Source of the DNA: Candidatus Saccharimonadota bacterium
Lineage (GTDB): Bacteria; Patescibacteriota; Saccharimonadia; Saccharimonadales; Saccharimonadaceae
DNA length: 41,934 bases
Direction: 5' to 3'
Assembly (NCBI GenBank): GCA_017652105.1
Contig: JAGCBP010000020.1
Coordinates: forward strand, 1 to 41,934
Made by a program: the position numbers and the translations under genes. Position 1 is the first letter of the stretch. Each line of letters starts with the position of its first letter. Positions 8,753 through 34,074 of the stretch are shown one piece after another. A model generated the notes under the pieces. That model was not told the origin of the DNA and did no database searches. It worked only from the letters and a program-made list of their open reading frames with translations.

Positions 8753-9745
8753 TTAGCCTCTTGGCGGCTCGCCATCCGGCTCACCTAAAAGTTTCTTTGA
8801 CTTAATTTCGTATCTTTTCCCATTCACCGGCGACACATAGTAGTCCTCATTTAAGAGATTTACAAACATGGTGAGATCTTTGTCATCCATGATGATAATT
8901 GAACCATCATCATCGGTCATGAGATCTAGCTGCATTTCATCGGCGTAATCTAGCAACTTGTCCTGCGGCATTTCCGAAGCAATATCCATTGCCTGCACTT
9001 TTTTGAGTAGTGGCTTTTTGTCCGCTAGCAGCGAGTCTAGAGTCAAACCCTCAGAGAAGGAAAGTTTGTATTTCTCGGTCAACTCTTTTGCCTTGGCCTC
9101 GGCTAGCACCTGCGATTTAAAATCATACTGAAATAGATTCTCAAACTTAGCTTGGTTGAACACAATTATTGTACCATCCACAATCGCCACTTGATTGTCC
9201 TCTGGCATTTTGAGGGCAATTTCCGCCGAGAACGGCTCAAAGCTCTCACCGTTAATCTCCCACGAGGAGGCTCCTTTTAGCGCCGAAGAAGCCGGCAAAA
9301 TCTTAGCAATATAAAAAGTTTTCATCCCATTCTCACCTGGATAAGTAAACTTGGCGATAATCCCTTTGACCTTCTTAAAGTCGTACTCGTTTTCCGAAAA
9401 ATAATCAATGTCTTTATATTCATGCTCAATCAAATGAATCAAAGTATCCGCCCGGTCCACCTTGGAAAGGGAAGCCCGATAAACCACATTTTCCTCGCCA
9501 TCGGCTTTTTCGTAATCACGGCATTCCAAGCCTTTTTCCGCCTCATTAATAATATAAGACACTGCTTCTTGCATAAATACCGACTTTACCGCCCCAGTCA
9601 ACTTATCCGAATAGCGGATTTTGTATGGCGTGTAGTTTTTGTTAAAGAGAAACAGCTCTGCCGACACATTATTTTTGATTGCATCTACCTGATTTGCCCA
9701 CAAGAACACGTCAAACGGCTCACCGAAATCACTAGAATTTTCCAT
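8753..9745 (-). CDS. KwaB / DUF4868-like protein
   Basis: 330 residues, soluble. The match to the DUF4868 (Kiwa KwaB) family is by pattern: KTFYIAKILPASSALKG, then a strand pair VAIVDGTIIVFNQAKFENLFQYD (about 185-208), a central helical region, and the family-like end FVNLLNEDYYVSPVNGKRYE. In the Kiwa anti-phage system KwaB works with membrane protein KwaA; no KwaA is adjacent here, so this is a solitary homologue whose role is uncertain. The start is supported by GTGAGGT before the ATG and TATAAT at 9774-9769. A 19-base palindrome lies just upstream of that -10 box. Confidence 0.6.
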   Translation of the reverse strand: MENSSDFGEPFDVFLWANQVDAIKNNVSAELFLFNKNYTPYKIRYSDKLTGAVKSVFMQEAVSYIINEAEKGLECRDYEKADGEENVVYRASLSKVDRADTLIHLIEHEYKDIDYFSENEYDFKKVKGIIAKFTYPGENGMKTFYIAKILPASSALKGASSWEINGESFEPFSAEIALKMPEDNQVAIVDGTIIVFNQAKFENLFQYDFKSQVLAEAKAKELTEKYKLSFSEGLTLDSLLADKKPLLKKVQAMDIASEMPQDKLLDYADEMQLDLMTDDDGSIIIMDDKDLTMFVNLLNEDYYVSPVNGKRYEIKSKKLLGEPDGEPPRG

Positions 9746-9775
9746 AATTTACCTCACTTATTTCCTCTATTATAC

Positions 9776-9794
9776 CACAGATTTTAAATCTGTG
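9776..9794. promoter_or_regulatory. Perfect 9+1+9 palindrome, operator candidate
   Basis: cacagattt-t-aaatctgtg reads identically on both strands. It lies immediately upstream of the -10 box (9774-9769) of the KwaB-like gene, where a repressor would block RNA polymerase. No cognate regulator is identified; it could also be a short RNA hairpin. Confidence 0.45.
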
Positions 9795-9913
9795 TGTTCG
9801 GTAATTACAACACAAAAGGGAACAAAAGTAAACCCCACTTTGTTCGGTAAACTTTTCCCCAGTTGTGGAAAACTCCCAGGTTGCAAAAAACCCAAAAAAG
9901 TCCAAAAAAGCAC

Positions 9914-9942
9914 TTGCATTATTTGAAAAAACATAATATACT
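9914..9942 (+). promoter_or_regulatory. Promoter upstream of the rsmH structured element
   Basis: TTGCAT (9914-9919), 17-base spacer, TATACT (9937-9942). Predicted start near 9949, about 50 bases before the 240-nt folded element and 300 bases before rsmH, which has its own -10 box. Confidence 0.6.
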
Positions 9943-9997
9943 GAAGTTAGTGGCAACATCATACAAAAACCACAAATCAAAAAAGTACATTAAAAAG

Positions 9998-10237
9998 GTT
10001 TGAGAACGGCCAACTAGGAGTTTCAGCGCGCATCAAATCTCAAGCGAGATGCGAAACCAAAGTCGCGCGTACCTTCTTTAACACACCTCCCAATAAAAAC
10101 TCTATAGGTCGTTAAGACCAAAGCACAATAAGTCTCTCAACGGCTACAATTTTTATAATTGTGGTAGATAAATTGTGTTAAAACAAAAATCAAACAGAAA
10201 CAAACCCGCTGAAGTTTCTAGTTGAGCGTTCTCAAAC
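9998..10237 (+). ncRNA. Candidate structured RNA, 240 nt, upstream of rsmH
   Basis: The ends pair over ~31 positions: 9998-10028 (begins gtttgagaacg, ends tttcagcg) with 10207-10237 (begins cgctgaag, ends cgttctcaaac), with three small mismatch patches. Inside are three hairpins: cgcat..ctc-aagc-gag-atgcg (about 10027-10051), ggtc-gttaa-gacc (about 10108-10120), and ctacaatt..aattgtggtag (about 10144-10167). This gives a closed multi-branch fold. A 17-spaced promoter lies 50 bases upstream. I could not match it to tmRNA, RNase P, SRP or 6S RNA. It could be a cis-regulatory leader of the division operon, a free ncRNA, or a small transposon-like element with inverted ends. Strand is inferred from the promoter. 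Confidence 0.5.
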
Positions 10238-10253
10238 GTTGTATAATATAAAT

Positions 10254-11135
10254 ATGGAGAAATTACATATCCCTGTATTACTATCAGAAGTTTTGGCAGG
10301 TCTCCAGCCGCAGTTGAACGATAAATATTTGGATCTCACAGCTGGCTACGGAGGACACGCCGAAAAAATTTTGGATGTAACACAGAATTATAAAGATTCC
10401 GTATTGATAGATAGAGATGAGTACGCCTATGAGTATCTAAAAGAGAAGTTTAAGGGCAGAAGTATCACTATCCTTCACAGCGATTTTTATAGCTCTATGC
10501 TACAGCTTTTAGAGAGTGGAAAAACTTTTGATATAGTGCTAGCGGATTTTGGAGTTTCTTCACCGCAGCTAGACATGGGCGAAAGGGGTTTTTCGTTTAC
10601 CAAAGAAGCTCCCCTAGACATGCGCATGGATCAGCGGCAGAAGCTTACGGCGGATCAAATCGTCAACCGCTGGAGCGAACGAGATTTAGGCGATCTATTT
10701 ATTAAATACGGCGAAATCCCCAAAGGTTCCGCCAGAATGTACGCCAGAGTCATCGTTCATCACCGCCCGATTCATTCCACCATTGAGCTCGCGGAATTAA
10801 TCCGTACTAGAATTCACGGATATTCCAAAACTCACCCAGCTACGCGTGTCTTTCAAGCCATCAGAATCGCGGTTAATGACGAGCTAGGAGAAATTGAAAG
10901 ATCTCTCCCGCTTCTGCCAGATTTATTAAATCAAAACGGCAGGCTCGCAATTATCACTTTTCACAGTCTAGAAGATCGGTTGGTCAAAGAGTTTCTAAAA
11001 TCAGAAACTTCAAATGGCGAGGAATCGAGATTAGAAGTAGAGAACAAAAAACCAATCACTGCGGGAAATGAGGAGTTGTTTATCAACCCGCGCTCTCGCA
11101 GCGCCAAATTGCGCGTTGCCAGAAAACGGAATTGA
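10254..11135 (+). CDS. rsmH: 16S rRNA (cytosine-1402-N4)-methyltransferase
   Basis: SAM-dependent enzyme (formerly MraW) that modifies C1402 in the ribosomal P site; it usually opens the division/cell-wall cluster, as here. 293 residues, near the normal ~310. It starts MEKLHIPVLLSEVLAGL; the SAM site is DLTAGYGGHAEKIL; further family motifs are ADFGVSSPQLD, GFSF followed by LDMRMDQ, and ITFHSLEDRLVKEFL; the C-terminus is NPRSRSAKLRVARK. An ATG 15 bases upstream was rejected because TATAAT (10242-10247) lies six bases before this one, giving a leaderless mRNA. The preceding 240-nt element and distal promoter may provide a second, longer transcript. Confidence 0.97.
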   Translation: MEKLHIPVLLSEVLAGLQPQLNDKYLDLTAGYGGHAEKILDVTQNYKDSVLIDRDEYAYEYLKEKFKGRSITILHSDFYSSMLQLLESGKTFDIVLADFGVSSPQLDMGERGFSFTKEAPLDMRMDQRQKLTADQIVNRWSERDLGDLFIKYGEIPKGSARMYARVIVHHRPIHSTIELAELIRTRIHGYSKTHPATRVFQAIRIAVNDELGEIERSLPLLPDLLNQNGRLAIITFHSLEDRLVKEFLKSETSNGEESRLEVENKKPITAGNEELFINPRSRSAKLRVARKRN

Positions 11136-11171
11136 TAAAAATAAAAATAATAAAAACAAAAGGAGGCACAA

Positions 11172-11246
11172 ATGCCAAAGCAAATCGTAGTTGCGAGCCG
11201 GTCTCGCACCCAAACCATCAAAGTTAATTTCAAAAAATCTAACTAA
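11172..11246 (+). CDS. 24-residue basic microprotein (family member A)
   Basis: Starts with ATG five bases after a very strong AGGAGG, 36 bases after rsmH stops. The peptide begins MPKQIVVASRSRTQ and ends in basic KKSN; there is no hydrophobic segment. Ungapped comparison with the 21-residue micro-ORF after der (32591-32656) gives about nine identities in twenty positions plus four conservative matches, with the shared pattern VVAxxS(K/R)TxxI(K/R)V. The codons differ, so similarity is at protein level. A 9-bp hairpin follows at 11270-11294. No known ribosomal protein or leader peptide is recognised. Function unknown; expression is strongly suggested by the ribosome-binding site. Confidence 0.6.
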   Translation: MPKQIVVASRSRTQTIKVNFKKSN

Positions 11247-11269
11247 CTTTGACACGAAATTGTGACCTT

Positions 11270-11425
11270 GTGGGGTCGCATCAAACGACCCCACGCACCT
11301 TTAAATATACATGGACCCTTAGGGTCCGCCAAAAATAGAGTTCACACTGGGTATGAGTGTGGTGTATGACCTTCCAGTGGGCTCAAATAAGTCACTTATA
11401 GCTCTGCTTATTTGAGGCTCACTGG
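11270..11425 (+). other. Hairpin-rich intergenic region inside the division operon
   Basis: Four separate inverted repeats occur between microprotein A and the ftsL-like gene: gtggggtcg/cgaccccac (11270-11294, loop 7); ggacc/ggtcc (11313-11327); cacact/agtgtg (11343-11361); and a long stem 11374-11391 with 11407-11425 (ctcaaataag with cttatttgag, then cagtg with cactg). The first could terminate part of the rsmH transcript; the last could be a processing site or attenuator. None has a good T tract. Confidence 0.5.
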
Positions 11426-11486
11426 CCTATGAATACAGTCTATCGATATCAAAAAAATAAAAATAAAAAAGGAGTTAAAAAATCTA

Positions 11487-11837
11487 ATGAGTAGCGTTCA
11501 AACCTATGCGTCCCGTCGCGAAATTAATCCGATCGGCTTTGCCCGTGGTCGTAATACTGTCCGCGTAGAAAAAAGAAGTTTGGGCTCTATTTCTCAGATT
11601 GTGATTATTATTTTGCTCACTTTAATTTTTGGCTTAATTTATGCTGCTGAGGGAACTAAATCCACTAGTTTTGATTACCAAGTTTCTGCCGTTGAATCCG
11701 AAATTTCCGATTTGAACGCTCGTCGTGATGACCTTGCGGTCGAGAAGGCCCGTCTGACATCTGTAGCTACCGCCAAAACCAGCACTGTTGCAGCTAGCAT
11801 GCCTGACGCTAATGTCACCGGCTATGCTACTGAATAA
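11487..11837 (+). CDS. FtsL/DivIC-like division protein
   Basis: 116 residues with a polar basic N-terminus, one membrane helix (SQIVIIILLTLIFGLIYAA, ~36-54) and an extracytoplasmic coiled-coil-like segment (VSAVESEISDLNARRDDLAVEKARL, in pieces). This bitopic layout, between rsmH and the division transpeptidase, is that of FtsL. FtsL sequences diverge strongly, so the call rests on topology and position. GGAG lies about 12 bases before the ATG, slightly far. It is followed two bases later by ftsI. Confidence 0.75.
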   Translation: MSSVQTYASRREINPIGFARGRNTVRVEKRSLGSISQIVIIILLTLIFGLIYAAEGTKSTSFDYQVSAVESEISDLNARRDDLAVEKARLTSVATAKTSTVAASMPDANVTGYATE

Positions 11838-11839
11838 TT

Positions 11840-13585
11840 ATGAAACGAATTAGATTCTTAAAACGAGCCACCTTGGTGCTTTTTGCGATTATTGTGGTAC
11901 GATTATTTTTTATTCAGATTATCGAACACGATGTTTGGGTGGCCAAAGCTGACGAAGCTCATACTATGCTTCAAACTATCACAGCTAAGCGCGGTGAAAT
12001 TTATATGATGGATGGAGGCGACCCCTCCGCAGTGGTACTCAATCAAACGGTTTATCAAGTCATCATCGATCCAGCCGTTACGCCAAAAGAGGAAATCAAA
12101 AAAGCTCTCGAGGAATATGCCAAGCCTTATATTACAGCCGATCTTGATAAAGTTTATAACACTGAAGGCCTCCGGTATTATATCGTAGCCAAAAATGTCC
12201 CTTATTCTAATGTCAACCAAATCGCTGAAAAGGGAATTAAAAGTGTCTGGTTAAAAGAAGGGAACAAAAGAGTCTACCCTGAGGGCGAAGTTGGCTCTAC
12301 AGTACTTGGTTTTGTCAATTCCGATGGCCTTGGTCAATACGGTGTAGAAGGCTCATTAAACGAGCTTCTGTCCGGTAAAGACGGTATGCTAAAATCTATT
12401 TCCGATGTCAACAATGTGGCTCTTTCTATTGGTGACGACAATGTTAAAATCCCCGCCGAAGATGGCAAAAATGTCGTTTTGTCGATCGACCGTGGCTTAG
12501 AGCGGGGAGTAGAAGAAGTTTTGGCCGATGCCATTAACCGTACCGCCGCCACCAACGCTGCTGCTCTCGTCATGAAGCCAGGCACCGGCGAAGTCGTGGC
12601 AATGACCGCTCTTCCAGGCTATAACCCAGGCAATTATGGTGATGTCAAAGACGCCTCCGCATATATTAATCAAGTTACGGAAGTCCCGTACGAACCGGCC
12701 TCGATTTTTAAAAACTTTGCTTTTAGCGCCGCTATCAACGAAGGCAAAATGACACCAGACAGCACCTATCTCAATACTCCTTATACTGTTGTTGACGGCA
12801 ATCAAATTTGGAACGCGGAGCAGCGTGCGATTTTAAATAATCAAACCCTCACCATGAGGGAAGCCTTATATTGGTCCTTAAATGTGGGCTCTATTCAGGC
12901 CCTCAAATTTTTAGGTGACAATCCGGACGAAATTACTGCTGCCGGCAGGGAAAGACTATATCACTATTACAACGACAAATTCCGCTTTAGTCACGCCACG
13001 GGTATTGAATTAATTGAACAAGAAGGTTTTATTTGGGATCCTCATGCCGAAATTTATGGTCTAGATGCAGCTTATGCCAACATGACTTTTGGTCAAAATC
13101 TTTCCGCCACCATGATTCAGACCGCTACCGCTTTTTCATCAGTAGTTAACGGCGGAATTTGGCGCACTCCAAGTGTAGTTAAAGGTACTTTAGAATCTGA
13201 TGGCACCATTAAACCGTTAGAAAATCGGGAAAAAGTCGAAGACCAAATTCTGACTCCAGAAACTTCTGCTACTATGAGAAGTCTTTTAGTCAACAACCGT
13301 AGCTACAAAGCTCGTGCTGGCATCGACAAACCTGGCTACGATGTGGGTGGTAAGTCCGGTACGGCCCAGGTCATCGTCAATGGTGCCTACGATGATTCCA
13401 TGAGCAACCTGGTCGGCTCTTACATCGGCTTTATCGCACCTTCCGGTGGGATGCCAGAATATGTCGTAATGGTAAAAATGTGGGGGGAAGGACAAGCTCT
13501 TTCCGGCGGCGAAGCTCAAGATCTCTTTGATGTGATGTCGAATTATGTGATTAACTATTTAAAAATTAAACCGGGAGGGGTATAA
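11840..13585 (+). CDS. ftsI: Division transpeptidase FtsI (PBP2/PBP3 class)
   Basis: Cross-links septal peptidoglycan together with FtsW. 581 residues. Single N-terminal membrane anchor (LVLFAIIVVRLFFIQII), a PBP-dimer domain (~50-210), then the transpeptidase domain with SxxK as SIFK (~Ser288), SxN as SLN (~346) and KTG as KSGT (~504). No PASTA repeats follow. It sits between the ftsL-like gene and mraY. Spacing to neighbours is one or two bases, so translation is likely coupled. Confidence 0.95.
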   Translation: MKRIRFLKRATLVLFAIIVVRLFFIQIIEHDVWVAKADEAHTMLQTITAKRGEIYMMDGGDPSAVVLNQTVYQVIIDPAVTPKEEIKKALEEYAKPYITADLDKVYNTEGLRYYIVAKNVPYSNVNQIAEKGIKSVWLKEGNKRVYPEGEVGSTVLGFVNSDGLGQYGVEGSLNELLSGKDGMLKSISDVNNVALSIGDDNVKIPAEDGKNVVLSIDRGLERGVEEVLADAINRTAATNAAALVMKPGTGEVVAMTALPGYNPGNYGDVKDASAYINQVTEVPYEPASIFKNFAFSAAINEGKMTPDSTYLNTPYTVVDGNQIWNAEQRAILNNQTLTMREALYWSLNVGSIQALKFLGDNPDEITAAGRERLYHYYNDKFRFSHATGIELIEQEGFIWDPHAEIYGLDAAYANMTFGQNLSATMIQTATAFSSVVNGGIWRTPSVVKGTLESDGTIKPLENREKVEDQILTPETSATMRSLLVNNRSYKARAGIDKPGYDVGGKSGTAQVIVNGAYDDSMSNLVGSYIGFIAPSGGMPEYVVMVKMWGEGQALSGGEAQDLFDVMSNYVINYLKIKPGGV

Positions 13586-32526: not shown

Positions 32527-32550
32527 ACCCTATAATTATAGCATAAAATC

Positions 32551-32588
32551 CCCAAAAAAATAAAAGCCCCTCCACTGGCTTTTATTTT
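32551..32588 (-). terminator. Intrinsic terminator of the der - microprotein B unit
   Basis: Twelve-base perfect stem (32557-32568 with 32577-32588) with an eight-base loop; on the minus strand it runs into a long T tract. It begins three bases past the microprotein B stop codon. Confidence 0.8.
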
Positions 32589-32590
32589 GA

Positions 32591-32656
32591 CTATTTAATG
32601 CGGTGCACTCTGATGTCAGAAGTTTTGGACTTTTTGGCCACAACTGTGATTTTCAT
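32591..32656 (-). CDS. 21-residue basic microprotein coupled to der (family member B)
   Basis: The ATG overlaps the der stop (ATGA), and AAAGGCG lies in the last der codons, so ribosomes can restart. The peptide begins MKITVVAKKSKTSD and ends IRVHRIK; no membrane segment. It shares VVAxxS(K/R)TxxI(K/R)V and about nine of twenty residues with microprotein A (11172-11246), at different codons. An intrinsic terminator follows directly, so this is the last cistron of the unit. The basic charge suggests binding to RNA or the ribosome (inference). No known family recognised. Confidence 0.6.
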   Translation of the reverse strand: MKITVVAKKSKTSDIRVHRIK

Positions 32657-34074
32657 TTTTCGCCTTTCTGCCCACGCTTACTATTATCACTTCGGTATGA
32701 AAACATAATCGGTGTCCCAATCAACGGGTACTTTTCACGAATTTTCCGTTCCAAAAATCTCTTCCAGGACCAGTGTAAAAGCCCCAAATCGTGCCCATGT
32801 AACACAAACCAAGGTGGGCAAGTATCAGTCTGGACCAGATATTTTGGCTTCGGATGGGTGTTTTTGAGCCCAGCCGGCAAATGCTCCAAAACCGCCTCGC
32901 TTAAAATCTTATTCAGTTCAGAGGTCGGAATCTCGGTATGGCGTGCTGCATCTACCTCTAGGGCTAGCTCAAAAATCTGGGTGACATTTTTGCCGCTCTC
33001 AGATGAAGTCAAAATCACCGGTGCGTACGGCAAAAAGTCGTAATCTCGTTCTAAATCATCCAAAAGAAAATCTGCCGCAGTGCGATTTTTGATATTCTCC
33101 TCGCCAAAATAATTAGTCGGCTCGGCATTTTCCAAAAGATCAGACTTGGTCACCACCATAATAATTCCCTTACCGGCCTCTATAATCTGTCCGGCTAGAC
33201 TTTGGTCTAATTTGACATGCGGCTCAGTAGAATCAATGAGTAGGCAGCAAATATCCGCTTCCTCAATCGCGGCCAAGGTCCGAATCGCCGAGAATTTCTC
33301 AATTCCTACCTCTCTTTTCCCCGGGCGGCGCAACCCCGCCGTATCTAGAATTTCAATCTCTCGCCCCTTGTACTTAACAGAAACCCGATTAACATCTCTT
33401 GTCGTCCCCTGGCGAGATGAAACAATCGCTTGCTGTTTTTTGCCAAGAGTATTAAACAGAGAGGATTTCCCCACATTCGGCCGTCCGATGAGAGCGAGTT
33501 TCAAGGTATTAGAATCGCCGTTTTGGGGGATTCCGGAGGTTGCTACCGAGGATAAGCGCCCGAGCCCCGTGAAGACGGGTGCGAGGGACGCGGCCCCCAA
33601 AATGGCTGATTCTAATACCTTAACCCCCTCTCCCGTAGTGGCCGAAACATAAAAACTCTTCTCTGGTGCGATTCCGAGAGCCCTAAATTCAGCCAGCGGC
33701 AAAGACTCAGATAAATCGCACTTATTCAGAACCAAAAACACCGGTTTTTTGGACCTAAGCGCATCTTTAGCGATTTTAGCATCCTTTTGGTCAAAATACT
33801 TCGAGGAATCTAACACCACCAAAATCGCATCAGCTGATTCTATCGCATCGGTAATTTGGTCTTGTATAGAGGCTTCAAAGTCATCGGTAGGATCCTTCAA
33901 CCCTGCCGTATCAATCAAAACAAAAGCATCATCAATCGTCGCCACCACATTATCACGCGTAGTACCCTCCTCGCGCGCCACGATTGCGATATTTTTATGT
34001 GCCATCCGATTGAGAATGCTAGATTTTCCAGCATTTGTTTGACCAATCAAAGCTACAATCGGTAAGCGTTTCAT
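32653..34074 (-). CDS. der: Ribosome-associated GTPase Der (EngA)
   Basis: Double-Era GTPase needed for 50S assembly. 473 residues. First G domain: GQTNAGKSSILN (G1), DTAGL (G3), NKCD (G4). Second: GRPNVGKSSLFN, DTAGLRRPGK, TKSD. A KH-like C-terminal domain follows (LVQTDTCPPWFVLHG, then LIGTPIMFSYRSDN). G1 of the first domain reads GQTNAGKS rather than GRPNVGKS. The linker at ~150-190 is short. AAGGGG precedes the ATG by seven bases. It lies downstream of tRNA-Glu on the same strand, with a copy of the tRNA 3' end in between. Confidence 0.95.
   Translation of the reverse strand: MKRLPIVALIGQTNAGKSSILNRMAHKNIAIVAREEGTTRDNVVATIDDAFVLIDTAGLKDPTDDFEASIQDQITDAIESADAILVVLDSSKYFDQKDAKIAKDALRSKKPVFLVLNKCDLSESLPLAEFRALGIAPEKSFYVSATTGEGVKVLESAILGAASLAPVFTGLGRLSSVATSGIPQNGDSNTLKLALIGRPNVGKSSLFNTLGKKQQAIVSSRQGTTRDVNRVSVKYKGREIEILDTAGLRRPGKREVGIEKFSAIRTLAAIEEADICCLLIDSTEPHVKLDQSLAGQIIEAGKGIIMVVTKSDLLENAEPTNYFGEENIKNRTAADFLLDDLERDYDFLPYAPVILTSSESGKNVTQIFELALEVDAARHTEIPTSELNKILSEAVLEHLPAGLKNTHPKPKYLVQTDTCPPWFVLHGHDLGLLHWSWKRFLERKIREKYPLIGTPIMFSYRSDNSKRGQKGEK

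What the first reader, a model, noticed from the sequence alone, without database searches (positions are those of the whole stretch)
11172..11246. A two-member family of 21-24-residue basic microproteins
The micro-ORF after rsmH and the one after der (32591-32656) align without gaps: about nine of twenty residues identical and four conservative, pattern VVAxxS(K/R)TxxI(K/R)V. Codons differ throughout, so the conservation is in the protein, not the DNA. Both have a ribosome-binding site and follow ribosome-related genes (rRNA methyltransferase, ribosome-assembly GTPase). Standard gene callers would miss them. A ribosome- or RNA-binding role is inference.
Basis: partly seen in the sequence, partly recalled or inferred. 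Interest (0 to 1): 0.82.

Follow-up and report, generated by a model that had tools for sequence, protein, structure and literature searches.

The report
Hidden tiny gene in all Saccharibacteria
Directly behind the rsmH gene lies an overlooked gene for a protein of only about 20 amino acids; it was found at the same spot in every Saccharibacteria genome that could be read here, is kept by selection on the protein, and belongs to no known family, while the supposed second copy behind der is not supported.

Summary
The rsmH half of the finding is real and larger than claimed; the "two-member family" is not supported. Window 11172-11246 encodes MPKQIVVASRSRTQTIKVNFKKSN behind a near-perfect Shine-Dalgarno. 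A homologous or positionally equivalent micro-ORF of 19-31 codons lies between rsmH and the ftsL-like gene in 35/35 same-genus genomes with a readable rsmH (genus of Candidatus Nanosyncoccus), 38/38 other loci of the order and 16/16 readable loci of a second order of the class. It was seen in none of 27 rsmH loci of other Patescibacteria. Amino acids are conserved while synonymous sites are near saturation (pN/pS 0.26-0.30), and rare codons are avoided. There is no Pfam, NCBIfam or PDB relative. The der micro-ORF (32591-32656) occurs in none of 60 relatives and is indistinguishable from background against the class-wide profile. In the first order a GC hairpin without a U-run usually follows the micro-ORF; in this genus a new structured RNA follows too. 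The second order has the micro-ORF but generally no hairpin, so the peptide, not the RNA, is the constant element. Best reading: a well-translated, stand-alone, basic, probably beta-hairpin microprotein, perhaps rRNA-binding (inferred). Main rival: a translated leader controlling ftsL.

The parts
10239..11135 (+). rsmH, 16S rRNA m4C1402 methyltransferase (upstream neighbour, complete)
   Evidence: TIGR00006 296 bits and PF01795 297 bits
11158..11166 (+). Shine-Dalgarno AAAAGGAGG, 5 nt before the micro-ORF start; a GGAG-type site is present in all 51 genus loci
   Evidence: read; genus table
11172..11246 (+). conserved micro-ORF MPKQIVVASRSRTQTIKVNFKKSN (24 aa, net charge +6)
   Evidence: 35/35 same-genus genomes with rsmH, 38/38 other loci of the order, 16/16 of a second order; pN/pS 0.26-0.30
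11270..11294 (+). GC hairpin GTGGGGTCG-loop-CGACCCCAC after the micro-ORF stop, no U-run; counterpart of the hairpin found across the order
   Evidence: folds; 34/38 order loci beat 15 shuffles, 0/38 followed by a U-run; only 2/15 in the second order
11291..11436 (+). genus-specific structured RNA between micro-ORF and ftsL; covarying long hairpin 11374-11425 with apical loop ACTTATAGCTCTG (11394-11406), conserved 5' flank TATGACCTTCC (11365-11375)
   Evidence: z = -5.0; 11 of 14 consensus pairs with two-sided changes; model R1 finds one copy per genome in 34 same-genus genomes and nowhere else; no Rfam match
11487..11837 (+). ftsL-like small protein (116 aa), named by position at the head of ftsI-mraY-ftsW-murG
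   Evidence: no family match of its own; downstream genes PF00905/PF03717, PF00953, PF01098, PF04101
32591..32656 (-). micro-ORF behind der (MKITVVAKKSKTSDIRVHRIK); not supported as a family member
   Evidence: absent from 60 relatives; A5 profile 4.1 bits, E 2.2, rank 7 in window

Best explanation
Window 11172-11246 is one member of a family of 19-24-residue, strongly basic microproteins (one 31-residue outlier) that is probably universal in Saccharibacteria (class Saccharimonadia), encoded as a separate cistron between rsmH and ftsL. SHOWN by sequence: the position is fixed, the amino-acid sequence is under purifying selection, and the micro-ORF exists with or without structured RNA behind it. 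INFERRED: it is translated well (strong Shine-Dalgarno, few rare codons) and acts as a protein in trans. INFERRED: the pattern x-I-x-V-[K]-x-x-x-S-(P)-R-A-x-K-[VL]-K-V-R-V is two short alternating strands around a turn, a mini beta-hairpin with a basic face, which most likely binds RNA; given its partner rsmH, the 30S subunit or 16S rRNA is the first candidate. My split: trans-acting microprotein about 0.65; rRNA/30S as target about 0.35. The GC hairpin in one order then probably protects or insulates the rsmH-micro-ORF part of the dcw transcript.
For: Present in all 51 genus loci examined (35 same-genus genomes plus 16 named loci, some of the same genomes), 38 distinct peptides; 38/38 other loci of the order and 15/15 of a second order by script, a 16th read by eye. 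Profile searches find it at rsmH, as the only strong match in each genome. pN/pS 0.26 in the genus, 0.27 and 0.29-0.30 in the two orders with pS near 0.7; third codon positions vary most. Rare Arg and Ile codons nearly absent, as in rplB and unlike rsmH (AGA/AGG 4%, 12%, 38%; ATA 1%, 2%, 19%). Net charge +4.4 to +6.1 on average. The second order keeps the micro-ORF without a downstream hairpin, so the product does not depend on one. The last residue is variable while alternation and charge are kept even in the divergent Nanosynbacter-type forms (MPIHIKVQFQDADKAEQVLVRRG).
Against: No expression, mass-spectrometry or binding data; no solved or curated relative. No strong match was found away from the rsmH-ftsL junction, which a purely trans-acting gene need not respect. 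The ribosomal tunnel holds more than 24 residues, so a leader role is physically easy. The ribosome link rests on charge, neighbourhood and codon usage only. Codon statistics come from related sequences and are not independent; the window's own copy does not score as codon-optimised.
Confidence: 0.45

Rival explanations
1. Translated leader: the micro-ORF acts in cis. Its translation, or a pause near its end, sets how much ftsL-ftsI-mraY-ftsW-murG is made, by coupling, ribosome occupancy or remodelling the RNA behind it; the peptide itself has no later role.
For: Fixed location between rsmH and ftsL in every readable genome; short enough to stay in the tunnel; a hairpin in most loci of one order and a covarying structured RNA in this genus lie just behind the stop; the C-terminal KVKVRV part is well conserved.
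Against: The second order has the micro-ORF with no comparable hairpin in 13 of 15 loci. The hairpins have no U-run (0/38) and are not terminators; no + strand terminator-like site lies between rsmH and ftsI. The final residue is variable, whereas arrest peptides usually conserve residues near the peptidyl-transferase centre. Rare-codon avoidance is not needed for a leader.
Confidence: 0.3
2. Divisome accessory: a trans-acting microprotein that binds a product of the same cluster (FtsL-like protein, FtsI) rather than RNA.
For: Strict placement at the head of the ftsL-ftsI-mraY-ftsW-murG run.
Against: No membrane segment, strongly basic; no co-varying change in the ftsL-like protein was looked for.
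Confidence: 0.12
3. Two-member paralogous family, one copy behind rsmH and one behind der.
For: Nine identities in an ungapped pairing; permutation p about 0.001 and best of 662 micro-ORFs in the window.
Against: The der copy is absent from 60 relatives, der and pth overlap in the nearest relative, the class-wide profile gives 4.1 bits, E 2.2, and the ribosome site is weak.
Confidence: 0.05
4. The micro-ORF arose by partial duplication of the rsmH 3' end: NPRARSAKLRVVEK in RsmH resembles SPRARKLKVRVVK in the second order. This concerns origin, not function.
For: Smith-Waterman permutation p about 3e-4 (the smallest value the test could give) in four loci of the second order; the RsmH tail is the second-best hit of the class profile in the window (E 0.23).
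Against: Not significant for the order-1 consensus and the Nanosynbacter-type forms (p 0.26-0.93); profile-profile P 0.022, probability 2%. The RsmH motif is universal and low in complexity.
Confidence: 0.2

Closest known systems
Ultra-small ribosomal proteins (bTHX, bL36, eL41)
   Same: Very short, strongly basic, conserved across a large clade, strong translation signals
   Different: No sequence relation found; shorter than these; presence in the ribosome untested. The comparison of sizes is from own knowledge.
Translated leader peptides / upstream ORFs that control a downstream gene (TnaC, MifM, ErmCL type)
   Same: Short ORF with strong ribosome site directly before a regulated-looking operon; structured RNA behind it in most of order 1
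   Different: No terminator or U-run, no hairpin in most of the second order, variable last residue, low pN/pS along the peptide
Unnamed small-protein clusters of metagenome catalogues (GMSC, PMC11364881; sORFdb, PMC11796252)
   Same: Such catalogues predict ORFs down to 30 nt (GMSC), so single copies may be listed there without a name
   Different: Neither catalogue could be searched here; the text searches made here found no report of this family
RsmH C-terminal motif NPRARSAKLR (PF01795)
   Same: Similar short basic stretch in the second order
   Different: RsmH is complete next door; similarity not significant class-wide

Membership tests
Ultra-small ribosomal protein | under about 40 aa and strongly basic | tested here: met
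   19-24 aa in all but one locus (31 aa); mean net charge +5.7 genus, +4.4 order 1, +6.1 order 2; lowest +1
Ultra-small ribosomal protein | homology to a known ribosomal protein | tested here: not met
   no Pfam, NCBIfam or significant PDB match
Ultra-small ribosomal protein | codon usage of highly expressed genes | tested here: inconclusive
   rare codons avoided as in rplB, pooled score between rsmH and rplB; related sequences, not independent
Ultra-small ribosomal protein | physically part of the ribosome | not testable with these tools
   needs ribosome mass spectrometry or cryo-EM
Regulatory leader peptide | short ORF with ribosome site directly before the regulated gene | tested here: met
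   between rsmH and ftsL in all readable loci
Regulatory leader peptide | alternative structure or terminator behind the ORF wherever it occurs | tested here: not met
   hairpin without U-run in order 1 (34/38 beat shuffles); only 2/15 in order 2
Regulatory leader peptide | conserved arrest residues at the C-terminus | tested here: inconclusive
   KVKVRV conserved, last residue variable
Regulatory leader peptide | ribosome stalling or response of the downstream gene | not testable with these tools
   needs toeprinting or reporters
Paralogous pair rsmH/der microproteins | both copies conserved in relatives | tested here: not met
   rsmH copy 35/35 in the genus, der copy 0/60
Paralogous pair rsmH/der microproteins | significant similarity | tested here: inconclusive
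   pairwise permutation p 0.001; profile E 0.62 and 2.2
Known structured RNA (Rfam) for the element at 11291-11436 | match to a described family | tested here: not met
   no match at E up to 1 in that region among 4227 families

The most novel reading that the evidence does not exclude
The microprotein is a previously unseen, Saccharibacteria-specific ribosome component or 30S assembly factor of about 20 residues, expressed with RsmH, which helps 30S maturation in a class reported to lack almost all era and rbfA genes (PMC12641178).
Probability: 0.15. Interest if true: 0.87.

Novelty: new variant of a known kind. Interest (0 to 1): 0.66.

Why it matters
A gene that appears to be universal in a whole bacterial class, inside the best-studied bacterial gene cluster (dcw), seems to have been missed because it has only about 20 codons. 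It is a compact target for learning what is special about translation or division in these tiny epibionts, and shows that synteny finds what gene callers and profile libraries miss. The genus-specific structured RNA next to it is a second new element.

Tried and rejected
Der copy as paralogue: tested by homologue search, der synteny, permutation and profiles, rejected. RsmH-tail duplication: suggestive only in the second order, not significant class-wide. Known RNA: no Rfam match at E up to 1 in the rsmH-ftsL gap. Known protein family or structure: none. Hairpin as intrinsic terminator: rejected, no U-run in 38 order loci, no + strand terminator-like site in 9700-12000. Micro-ORF in other Patescibacteria: not seen at 27 rsmH loci (a few with unclear rsmH ends) and no profile match outside the class in 240 genomes spread over the phylum (that profile is not fully sensitive, it missed G060 of the second order, whose micro-ORF reads MTLVIKNRTPHARKVKVRVK). 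A pseudoknot between the RNA's apical loop (AGCTCT) and the upstream AGAGTT was noticed but not tested. Structure prediction was not run: the single-protein limit is 30 residues.

Full report
WHERE IT IS. The window lies in a 668-kb Saccharibacteria genome. The region is a dcw cluster: rsmH (10239-11135), the micro-ORF (11172-11246), an ftsL-like gene named by position (11487-11837), then ftsI, mraY, ftsW and murG.

THE OBSERVATION. Both ORFs exist as described. The rsmH one has AAAAGGAGG five bases before its ATG. The der one has only AAAGGCG and overlaps the der stop. The pairwise similarity is the best among 662 micro-ORFs of the window (score 36, shuffled maxima 24-35), which is weak evidence because it was found by looking.

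CONSERVATION OF THE rsmH MICRO-ORF. Fetching rsmH from 60 relatives and reading behind it gave the micro-ORF in 30/30 loci and in the five further same-genus genomes with rsmH, so 35/35. Sixteen named public loci agree; some are the same genomes. The 51 loci hold 38 distinct peptides and 46 distinct DNA sequences, all with a GGAG-type ribosome site. A profile finds it in the same 35 genomes at rsmH, E 1e-10 to 1e-15; the few second matches are weak, E 0.008 or more. Other families of the order have a 19-residue version, MPIQVKNLSRAYKVKVRV-x. In a set of 195 genomes of the class this profile finds 53, mostly with E below 1e-7. Genomes missed by it can have divergent forms at the same place, for example MPIHIKVQFQDADKAEQVLVRRG in Nanosynbacter and MPIHITVQYSDQPQIVAVRVK in G063. 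Counting by position, 38/38 loci of the order carry it; the most divergent (L116, L156, L158) are assigned by position and pattern, not by profile.

A SECOND ORDER. In the order of G099, 15/15 loci by script and a 16th by eye carry MSIKVKDQSPRARKLKVRVVK-like micro-ORFs behind rsmH; one contig ends before the start codon. In 27 rsmH loci from other classes of the phylum nothing similar was seen; in many of them the ftsL-like gene follows directly. A class-wide profile (A5) matched no genome outside the class among 240 spread over the phylum, though it is not fully sensitive.

SELECTION AND EXPRESSION SIGNALS. pN/pS is 0.26 in the genus, 0.27 in order 1 and 0.29-0.30 in order 2, with pS about 0.64-0.70; codon position 3 is the most variable. 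Arg is coded by CGC/CGT in 93% of cases against 34% in rsmH and 81% in rplB; AGA/AGG make 4%, 38% and 12%, ATA 1%, 19% and 2%. This resembles well-expressed genes, but the sequences are related, other codons (Ala, Phe, Gln) do not follow rplB, and the window copy itself does not score as optimised.

RNA BEHIND THE MICRO-ORF. In order 1 a hairpin follows the stop codon: 34/38 loci beat 15 shuffles, mean 12.3 bp, sequence different in nearly every family, and none is followed by a U-run. It is therefore not an intrinsic terminator. In order 2 only 2/15 loci have a hairpin beyond shuffles. In the genus an extra element follows: window 11291-11436, z -5.0 for the region, a long hairpin whose pairs covary (11 of 14 consensus pairs with two-sided changes) around the apical loop ACTTATAGCTCTG, which most loci keep; a few have another loop. 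A covariance model finds one copy in 34 same-genus genomes, behind the micro-ORF, and none in other families. Rfam has no match there. The order of appearance is thus: micro-ORF class-wide, hairpin order-wide, structured RNA genus-wide.

THE der MICRO-ORF. It has no match in 60 relatives and no counterpart in the der loci that could be read. In the closest relative der overlaps pth, so the stretch between der and pth here, ending in a terminator-like hairpin, looks lineage-specific. The genus profile gives it 5.5 bits (E 0.62) and the class profile 4.1 bits (E 2.2, rank 7 among window micro-ORFs). I reject it as a family member.

WHAT IT MAY DO. Shown: a protein-coding, selected, positionally fixed micro-ORF. 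Inferred: a stand-alone product, because it persists without a downstream hairpin, is conserved along its length while its last residue is free, and avoids rare codons. Inferred: two alternating strands around an S-(P)-R-A turn, a mini beta-hairpin with a basic face, probably RNA-binding, with 30S/16S rRNA first because of rsmH. PMC12641178 reports that Saccharimonadia almost lack era and rbfA, which makes a class-specific 30S helper conceivable, no more. The rival is a leader acting on ftsL. Its best support is the unbroken location and, in one order and genus, the RNA structures.

RsmH TAIL. The second-order peptides resemble the RsmH tail NPRARSAKLRVVEK (permutation p about 3e-4 in four loci). 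The order-1 consensus and Nanosynbacter-type forms do not, and profile-profile comparison is weak (P 0.022). A partial duplication is a possible origin, not a result.

NOVELTY. No Pfam, NCBIfam or PDB relative and no report in the text searches made. Large small-protein catalogues may hold single copies without names; they could not be searched. Whether public annotations call this ORF was not tested.

Noticed in passing
window 11291-11436 (+): New genus-wide structured RNA between micro-ORF and ftsL with strong covariation and a mostly constant 13-nt apical loop; single copy, no Rfam match; a pseudoknot between the loop (AGCTCT) and upstream AGAGTT is possible but untested.
   Followed up: partly
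loci L095-L116, L139-L158, L162, L232 (order 1): A GC hairpin without U-run follows the micro-ORF stop in most families; stem sequence differs in nearly every family, position constant. Could be an intercistronic stabiliser.
   Followed up: partly
window 32530-32660 (-): Lineage-specific stretch between der and pth with a micro-ORF and a terminator-like hairpin; in the closest relative der overlaps pth.
   Followed up: partly
L034, L038, L039, L040, L048 downstream of der: In several relatives the gene behind der starts like a PIN/PhoH-type protein (VLDTNIIVDYVD) with a strong AAAAAGGAGG site instead of pth.
   Followed up: no
window 8753-9742 (-): Protein with a KwaB-like domain (PF16162, 33.7 bits, above cut-off) near the cluster; whether a partner KwaA is present was not checked.
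   Followed up: no
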